In this document: piece after piece, positions 34,575 through 36,584 of the stretch
Layout of the letters: each line of letters begins with the position of its first letter
Numbering within the stretch: the stretch's first letter is position 1
Assembly (NCBI RefSeq): GCF_000255295.1
Contig: NC_017030.1
Coordinates: 4,898,001-4,962,000, forward strand
Reading direction: 5' to 3'
Origin: Corallococcus coralloides DSM 2259
GTDB taxonomy: Bacteria > Myxococcota > Myxococcia > Myxococcales > Myxococcaceae
DNA: 64,000 bases
Translations under genes and position numbers: made by a program
Notes under the pieces: generated by a model
What the model was told of the DNA's origin: nothing
The model's database searches: none
The model's input: only the letters and a program-made list of their open reading frames with translations

Positions 34575-35420
34575 ATGCCATACCTGTCCATCCGTGGTGC
34601 ACGACTGTACTACGAGGACACAGGGGGAAGCGGGGAGCCGGTGCTTTTCAGCCACGGGCTGCTCTGGGACTCCCGTCTGTTCCACCGGCAGGTGGAGGCC
34701 CTGCGGGGCCACTACCGCTGCATCGTGTACGACCACCGGGGCCAGGGGCTGAGCGAGCCCCCGCCTGGCGACTCGGTCATCGACCTGCGCACCGTTTACG
34801 AGGACGCGGTGGCCGTCATCCAGGCGTTGGGGCTGGCGCCGTGTCACTTCGTGGGCCAGTCCATGGGCGGCTTCGTGGGCCTGAGGCTGGCCGCGAGGCA
34901 CCCGGAGCTCCTGCGCTCGCTGGCGCTGCTGGACTCTTCCGCCGCGGCGGAGCTGCCGCTGACGCTGGCGCGCTATCGGGTGCTGACGACGCTCACGCAC
35001 TGGCTGGGCCTGAGGCCGGTGGTGGACCGGATCATGTCGCTCTACTTCGGGCGCACGTTCATGCGGGACCCGGAGCGGGCCGCGGAGCGGGCGTTGTTGC
35101 GCCGGCAGCTGGTGGCGAACCCGCGCGCGGTGTGGCGCGCGATGCAGGGCGTCATCCACCGCCGCAGCGTGGAGGGGGAGCTGCACCGCATCCAGACGCC
35201 AACGCTGGTGCTGGTGGGGGACGAGGACGCGGTGACGGTGCCGGAGGTGGCGGAGCGGCTGCACCAGCGCATCCGGGGCGCGCGGCTCAGGCGGCTGAGC
35301 TGCGGCGGGCACATGTGCATCCTGGAGCAACCCCAGGCGGTCAACGTCGCGCTGGGAGACTTCCTGGAGGAGGTGGAGCGCACCTCGCTCCAGGAAGAGG
35401 TGCTGGCGGCGGTGAACTAG
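34575..35420 (+). CDS. Alpha/beta-hydrolase
   Basis: 281 aa. Nucleophile Ser96 in VGQSMGG, acid near Asp216-Asp218 (VGDEDAV) and His246 (CGGHMC) form the triad; the oxyanion HGLLWD motif is at 27-32. Similar enzymes hydrolyse esters, lactones or haloalkanes, and no narrower call is possible. No signal peptide, so it acts in the cytoplasm. The stop overlaps, tail to tail by four bases, the stop of the first small cysteine-rich protein gene. The ribosome site (GGGGGAAAAGC) is weak. Confidence 0.9.
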   Translation: MPYLSIRGARLYYEDTGGSGEPVLFSHGLLWDSRLFHRQVEALRGHYRCIVYDHRGQGLSEPPPGDSVIDLRTVYEDAVAVIQALGLAPCHFVGQSMGGFVGLRLAARHPELLRSLALLDSSAAAELPLTLARYRVLTTLTHWLGLRPVVDRIMSLYFGRTFMRDPERAAERALLRRQLVANPRAVWRAMQGVIHRRSVEGELHRIQTPTLVLVGDEDAVTVPEVAERLHQRIRGARLRRLSCGGHMCILEQPQAVNVALGDFLEEVERTSLQEEVLAAVN

Positions 35421-35689
35421 CCCCGGGCCTCGGGCTCGCGGCAGACAGCCTCCGACGCCTCGTCGGTGTCCGCGGGCTGCACGGAGGCCTGCGGCTCGGA
35501 CGGGGCGACCGACGGGATGCAGATGCCGTACTCGCCACACGTGATGATGTGGCCGGCATCCAGACAGGCCTCGGTGCACCGCACCCGCTCACAGTAGTCG
35601 TTGGTGCAATCCGGCGGCCGGGCGCTGGCGGTCAACGGTGCGAGGAGGAGGGCAGGAACCAGGAGCAGGGAGCGGCGGAGCAGCGTCAT
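35417..35689 (-). CDS. Small secreted seven-cysteine protein 1
   Basis: 90 aa: signal peptide (MTLLRRSLLLVPALLLAPLTASA) then a mature part with seven cysteines spaced C-x4-C-x4-C-x3-C-x8-C-x5-C and a last one in AVCREP. A CGEYGIC loop and a SEPQAS/QPA linker recur in the two next genes. I recognise no family. The start ATG 35689 has GAGGTG upstream. Six cysteines could make three disulfides; the seventh, near the C-terminus, would be free to form a dimer (inference). The gene faces the alpha/beta-hydrolase gene and overlaps its stop by three to four bases. Confidence 0.8.
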   Translation of the reverse strand: MTLLRRSLLLVPALLLAPLTASARPPDCTNDYCERVRCTEACLDAGHIITCGEYGICIPSVAPSEPQASVQPADTDEASEAVCREPEARG

Positions 35690-35942
35690 GAGGCACCTCG
35701 GGGTGGAGTGGCACCACTGCGGCTGAAGGCTGTCGACGAGACGAAGACAGCCCGGCGCATGCTCGCCCGGAACCCGATGACGGATCAAACCCCTGTTCCT
35801 GAAGTCGGTGAGGACACCGATCCAGGAACAGGGACCTCAACGGCTCTCAGCCCTGGGCTTGATCAGCGGGAGTGCGGCAGACAGCTTCCGCGTCGTCGGC
35901 CTGGGCGGGCGCGGGCTGCACGGAGGACTGCGGCTCGGACGG
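35681..35942. repeat. Direct repeat copy 1 (454-bp period) in the cysteine-rich gene array
   Basis: The start of gene 1, its leader, the terminator of gene 2 and the 3' end of gene 2 are repeated at 36135-36398. Long exact blocks are shared, for example from TGGCACCACTGCGGCTGAAG through the CGACGAGACGAAGACAGCCC stretch. Confidence 0.9.
35791..35833 (-). terminator. Terminator of cysteine-rich gene 2
   Basis: CCCTGTTCCTG pairs perfectly with CAGGAACAGGG, with an inner CGGT/ACCG. The copy after gene 3 keeps the pairing although the sequence differs. Confidence 0.85.
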
Positions 35943-36143
35943 CTGCGCCACCAGGCCGTCGCAGAGGCCTGCCTCTCCACACGTGATGAAGGTTCTGTCG
36001 AAGTCCCAGCACACGGTGTCGCACGTCGTCTGGGAGGTGCACTTGTAGTCACAGTACGGAGGATAGGGAGCCGCAGCGCTGGCGGACAACGGCGCGAGGA
36101 GCAGGGCGGGGACCAGGAGCAGGGAGCGGGGAAGCAGCGTCAT
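35847..36143 (-). CDS. Small secreted seven-cysteine protein 2
   Basis: 98 aa. The signal peptide (MTLLPRSLLLVPALLLAPLSASA) is almost that of protein 1, while the C-terminal third (AQADDAEAVCRTPADQAQG) is that of protein 3. The cysteine pattern is C-x3-C-x5-C-x3-C-x9-C-x5-C plus the late AVCR. This mosaic suggests unequal crossing-over or gene conversion among the three genes. It shares the leader block with gene 1 and is followed by its own hairpin at 35791-35833. Function unknown; exported to the periplasm or outside. Confidence 0.8.
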   Translation of the reverse strand: MTLLPRSLLLVPALLLAPLSASAAAPYPPYCDYKCTSQTTCDTVCWDFDRTFITCGEAGLCDGLVAQPSEPQSSVQPAPAQADDAEAVCRTPADQAQG

Positions 36144-36398
36144 GAGGCACCTCGGGAATGAGTGGCACCACTGCGGCTGAAGGCTGTCGACGAGACGAAG
36201 ACAGCCCGGCGCATGCTCGCCTGGAACCCAATGACAGATCAAACCCTGCTCCTGGAGTCGGTGAGGACACCGATCCAGGAGCAGGGACCGCAACGCCTAT
36301 CAGCCCTGGGCCTGGTCGGCGGGGGTCCGGCAGACGGCTTCCGCGTCGTCAGCCTGGGCGGGCGCGGGCTGCTGCGCGGACGCCTGCGGCTCGGACGG
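36135..36398. repeat. Direct repeat copy 2 in the cysteine-rich gene array
   Basis: Partner of 35681-35942, covering the start and leader of gene 2, the terminator of gene 3 and the 3' end of gene 3. Confidence 0.9.
36244..36286 (-). terminator. Terminator of cysteine-rich gene 3
   Basis: CCCTGCTCCTGG pairs perfectly with CCAGGAGCAGGG, with the inner CGGT/ACCG retained. Compared with 35791-35833, one T-A pair has become C-G on both arms, a compensatory change. Confidence 0.85.
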
Positions 36399-36584
36399 GG
36401 CGATCATGAGGTCGCTGCAGATGCCGTAAGCGCCGCACGTGGTGGTCCGGCCATTGTAACAGAGCAGGCTGCAGGAGCTGGTGGGCTGGCACTGCTCGGC
36501 ACAGTCCGGGGGGATGGCGCTTGCGGTCAGCGGGAAGAGGAAGGAACCAACGGCGCCGACGAGAAGGGTCTTGATGAGTTTCAT
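36300..36584 (-). CDS. Small secreted seven-cysteine protein 3
   Basis: 94 aa, the most upstream of the three. The signal peptide (MKLIKTLLVGAVGSFLFPLTASA) differs from the other two, but the mature part has the same seven-cysteine plan (C-x3-C-x5-C-x3-C-x7-C-x5-C and AVCR) and the same tail as protein 2. An AGGAG ribosome site precedes ATG 36584. Because its leader is unlike that of genes 1 and 2, it may be separately regulated. It is divergent from dnaE2, with 286 bases between. Confidence 0.8.
   Translation of the reverse strand: MKLIKTLLVGAVGSFLFPLTASAIPPDCAEQCQPTSSCSLLCYNGRTTTCGAYGICSDLMIAPSEPQASAQQPAPAQADDAEAVCRTPADQAQG

What the first reader, a model, noticed from the sequence alone, without database searches (positions are those of the whole stretch)
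35417..36584. Three tandem secreted seven-cysteine proteins of unknown family
Three adjacent small genes share a seven-cysteine plan (C-x3-4-C-x4-5-C-x3-C-x7-9-C-x5-C and a late AVCR), a CGxxGxC loop and a SEPQ/QPA linker. Odd cysteine number suggests three disulfides plus a free one for dimerising. I know of no such named family. They could be toxins, bacteriocin-like or structural miniproteins. This is the best candidate in the window for an undescribed system, but no function is shown.
Basis: partly seen in the sequence, partly recalled or inferred. Interest (0 to 1): 0.6.

Follow-up and report, generated by a model that had tools for sequence, protein, structure and literature searches.

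The report
Uncatalogued exported six-cysteine module genes
Three neighbouring genes in a predatory soil bacterium make small exported proteins whose knotted six-cysteine head is a building block with no clear match in the protein-family catalogues searched, and it is sometimes fused into larger proteins, so it is more likely an extracellular binding or structural part than a toxin.

Summary
Three minus-strand genes (35417-35689, 35847-36143, 36300-36584) encode 90, 98 and 94 aa proteins with the stated cysteine plan. They belong to a multi-copy family: 11 places in this genome (one frameshifted), 16 of 16 genomes of the genus, 55 of 96 of the taxonomic family. No significant Pfam, NCBIfam or PDB match and no Foldseek match was found. 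In 121 members the pattern is a ~30-residue head of six cysteines (eight in 19, the extra two coming as a pair) plus an acidic, probably disordered tail with one lone cysteine (112 of 121). All 121 mature parts, as trimmed, carry net negative charge, unlike cationic antimicrobial peptides. The same head occurs in predicted lipoproteins before a thrombospondin-3 stretch, and about six times in a 4,916-codon EGF-containing frame of another myxobacterial family: an uncatalogued extracytoplasmic disulfide module, used the way EGF domains are. At one locus a head was replaced between largely conserved flanks. Best reading: exported binding or structural miniproteins with a cysteine for cross-linking; inferred, not shown. 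Toxin or inhibitor roles remain possible. Interest 0.48.

The parts
36300..36584 (-). Gene 3: 94 aa, signal peptide + 6-Cys head + acidic tail with lone Cys
35847..36143 (-). Gene 2: 98 aa, same plan
35417..35689 (-). Gene 1: 90 aa, same plan; its 3' end overlaps the 3' end of the convergent alpha/beta-hydrolase gene
36417..36503 (-). Six-cysteine head of gene 3
   Evidence: core profile A4 match
35961..36053 (-). Six-cysteine head of gene 2
   Evidence: core profile A4 match
35519..35608 (-). Six-cysteine head of gene 1
   Evidence: core profile A4 match (profile positions 3-30) extended to the first Cys
36244..36286 (-). Long hairpin after gene 3, one bulged base (76 nt folded: MFE -43 kcal/mol, z -5.8); the terminator scan found none, so function open
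35790..35834 (-). Matching hairpin after gene 2 (z -5.1), stem kept with changes on both sides
35622..35792 (.). Copy, 92% identical, of 36076-36246: signal-peptide end and upstream region of genes 1 and 2

Best explanation
The three genes encode exported miniproteins built on a ~30-residue disulfide module not present in the catalogues searched (typically C-x3-4-C-x3-6-C-x3-C-x7-11-C-x4-15-C, often TTCGxxGxC). After Sec export the head closes as three internal disulfides, four in the eight-cysteine subtype. The acidic low-complexity tail stays flexible, and its single cysteine near the C-terminus can join two heads or anchor the protein to a partner. The head acts outside the cytoplasm as a binding or structural module, in the way EGF-type modules do, and the family gives one cell a set of different heads. 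Shown: gene reality, homology, Cys plan, net negative charge, export-type signal sequence (by pattern), phyletic range within the genomes searched, reuse of the head in multidomain proteins (by profile), head replacement at one locus. Inferred: disulfide pairing, cross-linking by the tail Cys, periplasmic or extracellular place, binding or structural role.
For: Family and signal peptides. The two extra Cys (after C2 and after C6) occur together: 19 members have both, 101 neither, 1 has one only (the script gave 17/101/3, and L066 and L067, mis-trimmed, were moved by eye), which supports a fourth head disulfide. The tail Cys can be lost on its own in six related members, and no acidic lone-Cys tail follows the head in the fusion proteins. 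Predicted lipoproteins: found by the head profile at E 1.4e-6 to 1.4e-3 (five ORFs); three of the five tested further: 20.7-28.5 bits with two profiles, against maxima of 14.7-20.6 in 1000 shuffles that keep every Cys, 0 of 1000 reaching in all six tests. TSP_3 beside the head: Pfam E 1.2e-5 in L169, over the gathering score, and 5.3e-5 in L170, below it. Six repeats of 7 bits or more in a 4,916-codon frame with EGF domains: best 23.1 bits against a maximum of 16.7 in 1000 Cys-keeping shuffles and 11.1 in 2000 full shuffles; the EGF region of the same protein scores -4.2; profile-profile probability 94.9, E 4e-8. AlphaFold2: head residues 1-30 at block-mean pLDDT 90-93, the rest 40-65.
Against: No function, localisation or expression data were found. 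The leaders suit a periplasmic protein equally well. Multidomain use shows where the module may be, not what it does. The fusion proteins are in other genera and the giant frame in one genome only; the shuffles test each protein on its own, not the search that chose it, so convergent Cys spacing is not fully excluded. Two other hits of the head profile that I fetched (G052, G130) look like compositional chance, and a third (G179) was not fetched. L130 keeps the tail Cys but lacks the first head Cys, which would fit a head-tail disulfide.
Confidence: 0.42

Rival explanations
1. Secreted toxin or bacteriocin-like peptides used in predation or competition: a constant leader and tail carry a variable disulfide head that hits prey targets.
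For: Small, exported, Cys-rich, lineage-restricted, multi-copy; at one locus the head differs strongly while signal peptide and upstream DNA stayed 86-99% identical, an arrangement recalled from animal venom gene families; dN is higher in the head than in the signal peptide in all three ortholog sets.
Against: All 121 mature parts net negative as trimmed; no recurring neighbour that could be immunity or export at 7 of 8 dispersed copies (by eye); head dN/dS 0.43-0.74 in the sets of orthologues or close copies; heads in lipoprotein-like ORFs and an EGF giant; 19 members scanned: no PADLOC match, two weak single PHROGs ones, one a 'tail protein' at E 0.025.
Confidence: 0.2
2. Secreted inhibitors of proteases or other hydrolases, protecting the producer from its own or its prey's enzymes; head loops vary with the target.
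For: Small disulfide heads with variable inter-cysteine loops are a common inhibitor design (general knowledge); myxobacteria secrete many hydrolases (recalled).
Against: No match to an inhibitor family among the Pfam and PDB hits listed; in alignments A1 and A2 little besides Cys is invariant, so no fixed reactive residue is seen.
Confidence: 0.13
3. Periplasmic redox or metal-handling proteins: the Cys act chemically, and the lone tail Cys is the reactive thiol.
For: Odd, conserved Cys number; acidic tail could hold cations; signal peptide compatible with periplasm.
Against: No C-x2-C in the usual head spacing; even head Cys number and paired gain of extra Cys point to structural disulfides; the tail Cys is absent in six members.
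Confidence: 0.1
4. Developmental, spore-coat or extracellular-matrix proteins of fruiting myxobacteria, cross-linked by the tail Cys (a special case of the preferred reading).
For: Among 195 genomes of the phylum the stand-alone family was found in one taxonomic family only, 55 of 96 genomes; acidic, cross-linkable miniproteins suit a matrix.
Against: No expression data found; no match in 41 of 96 genomes of the family at the cut-off used.
Confidence: 0.12

Closest known systems
EGF-like domain (PF00008) and similar small extracellular disulfide modules
   Same: Six-cysteine, ~30-40 residue module; occurs alone, in tandem and fused to other domains; the giant frame in L167 carries both.
   Different: Cysteine order and spacing differ; 0 of 87 members match PF00008 at E 0.1; the module profile scores -4.2 bits on the EGF region.
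CS-alpha-beta peptides (scorpion alpha-toxins, defensins)
   Same: Part of the spacing (C-x5-C-x3-C); weak profile matches to scorpion toxin chains (E 0.051 at best).
   Different: The match fades with the larger profile (2.3) and is absent with the head-only profile; no C-x-C at the end of the six-Cys head; the model has only short helices of four residues and two short strands; proteins are net negative.
NF041328 MXAN_6577-like cysteine-rich protein
   Same: Another small Cys-rich myxobacterial family; one of 87 members scores E 0.051.
   Different: The genome's own member over the cut-off lies elsewhere (170.4 bits at 8987490); the window proteins do not match.
Venom-type gene families (conotoxins), recalled, by way of working only
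   Same: Conserved signal peptide and upstream flank around a different head with a fixed Cys frame at one locus.
   Different: Head dN/dS is below 1 in every set examined, and synonymous divergence is raised in the head too (0.80 against 0.17), which points to replacement rather than focal positive selection.

Membership tests
EGF-like domain (PF00008) | Match to the family profile | tested here: not met
   0 of 87 members at E 0.1
EGF-like domain (PF00008) | EGF disulfide pairing 1-3, 2-4, 5-6 (recalled) | not testable with these tools
   no coordinates or mass spectrometry
CS-alpha-beta defensin/scorpion toxin | Significant sequence or fold match to solved members | tested here: not met
   E 0.051 at best with A1, 2.3 with A2, none with A4; Foldseek none, on a weak model
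CS-alpha-beta defensin/scorpion toxin | Helix carrying C-x3-C plus late C-x-C strand (recalled) | tested here: not met
   Cys spacings of 121 members show no C-x-C at the end of the head
Cationic antimicrobial peptide / class II-type bacteriocin | Net positive mature peptide | tested here: not met
   121 of 121 net negative or zero as trimmed, three of them cut at the C-end
Cationic antimicrobial peptide / class II-type bacteriocin | Linked immunity or export gene | tested here: inconclusive
   no recurring neighbour by eye at 7 of 8 dispersed copies, no profile scan of neighbours; the tandem is flanked by hydrolase and dnaE2 genes
NF041328 | Score over curated cut-off | tested here: not met
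   no match for the three window proteins up to E 10
New family proposed here (six-Cys head + tail Cys) | Signal peptide, six-Cys head, acidic tail with lone Cys, in the three window proteins | tested here: met

The most novel reading that the evidence does not exclude
The head is an undescribed extracellular domain of Myxococcota, and its stand-alone members form a repertoire of interchangeable binding heads on a constant carrier (signal peptide, acidic tail, cross-linking Cys), diversified by duplication and head exchange for recognition of kin or prey.
Probability: 0.15. Interest if true: 0.75.

Novelty: new variant of a known kind. Interest (0 to 1): 0.48.

Why it matters
The module occurs in 55 of 96 searched genomes of a predatory, multicellular bacterial family, up to 11 times per genome, and appears in predicted lipoproteins and an EGF-bearing giant frame, yet none of the 87 members scanned has a significant entry in the Pfam or NCBIfam copies searched. 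Naming it would give these small proteins a family and a handle on myxobacterial cell-surface and matrix biology. The head replacement at one locus is a concrete, testable case of diversification.

Tried and rejected
Rejected: (1) chance or antisense ORFs: homology across the genus and dN/dS below 1. (2) Cationic antimicrobial peptide: net negative. (3) Scorpion/defensin fold: weak matches faded as the profile improved. (4) Focal positive selection in the head: pN and pS are both raised in the replaced head. (5) Phage or plasmid cargo: no tblastn match of gene 3 at E 0.01. (6) A recurring neighbour: none seen by eye at 7 of 8 dispersed copies. (7) Known RNA element: no Rfam match at gathering scores; besides itself, the 158-bp stretch between genes 2 and 3 has one near-full copy in the genome, the tandem one, and short or weak pieces.

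Led nowhere: Foldseek and VIA-align (0 matches); single-sequence AlphaFold of gene 2 (pLDDT 54); literature searches (listings and starts of abstracts only; PMC6306037 searched for six terms, 0 occurrences). The library holds open-licence papers only, so absence there is weak. Hairpins after other members: my script could not handle bulges and missed the two window hairpins, so I do not use its counts.

Weak matches not followed: Pfam, best E 0.01 (DUF7394), 0.014 (DUF5837), 0.024 (Crisp), each for one of 87 members, and YLATT at E 0.1 for gene 3, all single.

Rows dropped and limits: from 124 extracted ORFs I dropped 3 (one truncated, two pieces of a frameshifted copy) to reach 121. L010, L012_1558 and L131 were cut at the C-end because the frame runs on, which leaves basic residues of L131 out of its charge. 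The pI calculator has a floor of 4.05 (recalled), so the median of 4.05 means 'at or below'. Of 121, 110 remained after an 85% filter, and I gave 87 of those 110 to A2. A1 (19) and A4 (41) were hand-picked; A4 includes five modules of the giant frame, so its G171 hits are not independent (A2 and A4f do not include them). Members found later are not in the counts. The genome search scored only part of its candidates in most genomes and cut its match lists, so copy numbers and absences are bounds. In one search the script gave 109 of 121 with exactly one tail Cys; I raised this to 112 by inspecting L066, L067 and L130. Head Cys numbers follow my cutting rule and were checked by eye.

Full report
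What is there. On the minus strand of the window lie three tandem genes at 36300-36584, 35847-36143 and 35417-35689, coding for 94, 98 and 90 aa. Each has a signal peptide ending in an AXA-type site, a head of six cysteines within about 30 residues, and a tail rich in S, E, P, Q, A and D with one cysteine near the end. The genes sit between a convergent alpha/beta-hydrolase gene and a divergent dnaE2 gene. One or both of these neighbours lie beside the tandem-type loci in the genus, and one of them beside members in four genomes of one other genus, g19.

The family. Gene 3 alone finds its two neighbours and further copies in the genome. A 19-sequence profile gives 11 places in this genome, three in the tandem and eight dispersed (the 11 are all listed), matches in 16 of 16 genomes of the genus and in 55 of 96 of the family, over 7 of 26 genera; the phylum-wide run gives the same 55 of 195 genomes. 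With the mature-part profile A2 it is 53 of 195, one of them (G171) outside the family. No significant match in Pfam, NCBIfam or PADLOC; some weak single ones, told under Tried and rejected; PHROGs two weak single ones, E 0.025 and 0.043. tblastn of gene 3 finds nothing in the phage and plasmid collections.

Cysteine anatomy. I extracted 121 distinct members: 92 with 7 Cys in the mature part, 17 with 9, 2 with 10 (mis-trimmed, really 9), 7 with 6 and 3 with 12. The 9-Cys members have one extra Cys separated from C2 by one residue and one separated from C6 by two or three. The two extra Cys go together (19 both, 101 neither, 1 partial after moving L066 and L067 by eye), as a fourth disulfide would. 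The tail Cys is present in 112 of 121 (script 109, corrected by eye). It is missing in six related members whose head is intact, and in three 12-Cys members whose tail is replaced by a six-Cys segment. Counting the last, distant Cys as tail, the head number is even in 120 of 121; the exception, L130, lacks C1. This supports a self-contained head plus one solitary Cys, but it is an inference, and L130 leaves room for a head-tail bond.

Physical properties. All 121 mature parts, as trimmed, are net negative, median charge -9.3, pI at most 5.32. AlphaFold2 with the 87-row alignment gives block-mean pLDDT 90-93 for residues 1-30, with two short strands and two four-residue helices, and 40-65 after that; the whole model has mean pLDDT 69.8 and pTM 0.42. 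Foldseek finds no solved relative; for so small a model this does not show a new fold.

The head is a module. Two profile searches of 195 genomes found it outside the stand-alone form. The best repeat scores 23.1 bits, against at most 16.7 in 1000 shuffles that keep every cysteine in place and 11.1 in 2000 full shuffles; six repeats reach 7 bits against at most 3; the EGF region of the same protein scores -4.2. The profile-profile comparison gives probability 94.9. In two other genera of the family, four ORFs (L169, L170, L171, L173) with a lipobox by eye carry the head directly before a thrombospondin type 3 stretch (Pfam run on two of the four: E 1.2e-5, over the gathering score, and 5.3e-5, below it), and one (L172) carries two heads. 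For three of these five, scores of 20.7-28.5 bits compare with at most 14.7-20.6 in Cys-keeping shuffles, 0 of 1000 in each of six tests. Of ten places fetched with these, two (G052, G130) look like chance and three more are ordinary family members; a hit in G179 was not fetched.

How the family evolves. Orthologous heads are 77-94% alike for gene 1, 69-79% for gene 2 and 62-75% for gene 3 at DNA level. Heads within one genome are 52-62% alike in five genomes of this tandem type, 58-70% in G011 and 76% in G056. So gene 1 and gene 2 heads are clearly distinct inherited types; for gene 3 the ranges nearly touch. dN/dS of the head is 0.60, 0.74 and 0.63 for the three sets, against 0.29, 0.36 and 0.42 for the signal peptide. 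In this genome the upstream regions of genes 1 and 2 are 92% identical while their heads are 57% identical, so flanks have been copied or homogenised around distinct heads. At another locus three species keep upstream DNA at 86-90% and signal peptides at 94-99%, but their heads are 52-57% alike (58-63% by pairwise alignment) and their tails 75-83%; downstream DNA is kept between two of the three (93%) but not in G008 (46-49%). Pooled synonymous divergence is 0.80 in the head against 0.17 in the signal peptide. The G005 head is 90-92% identical to that of a gene at a different locus in G001 and G002, whose upstream DNA is only 56% alike. That is the signature of head replacement by recombination, direction not determined. 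It is one clear case, not a general hypervariability. One dispersed copy in this genome is frameshifted.

Interpretation. An export-type leader, net negative charge, lack of a recurring neighbour, purifying selection and reuse beside TSP_3 and EGF domains make an extracytoplasmic binding or structural module the most likely reading (0.42). A toxin (0.20), an inhibitor (0.13), a matrix or spore-coat protein (0.12) and a redox or metal protein (0.10) are the rivals. The finding is a family not present in the catalogues searched, of a known kind (small disulfide module), hence 'new variant of a known kind'. Eight literature searches listed no description; the library is limited to open-licence papers.

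Noticed in passing
G000:C1:4275955-4276170 (L073): A paralogue is frameshifted just after the signal peptide; it lies beside a gene that reads by eye like signal peptidase I (not checked by profile).
   Followed up: partly
L054, L094, L103: A 12-cysteine variant (head plus a six-Cys segment in place of the acidic tail) lies divergently beside an ordinary member in three genomes.
   Followed up: no
L167:5109-19856: A 4,916-codon open frame in a 4.6 Mb myxobacterial genome combines the six-Cys module, EGF domains, TPR and a vitellogenin-like N-terminal region.
   Followed up: partly
window 36244-36286 and 35790-35834: Long hairpins after genes 3 and 2, with paired changes between the copies; no terminator found by the scan; function unknown.
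   Followed up: partly
L012/L079 (G013): The alpha/beta-hydrolase gene beside the tandem appears broken: tblastn matches only residues 38-137 in two pieces in different frames.
   Followed up: no
family members: 43 of 121 members end in -ES (30 -AES, 10 -VES) and 26 of 121 in -RG/-QG, a surprisingly kept C-terminus for a probably disordered tail.
   Followed up: no
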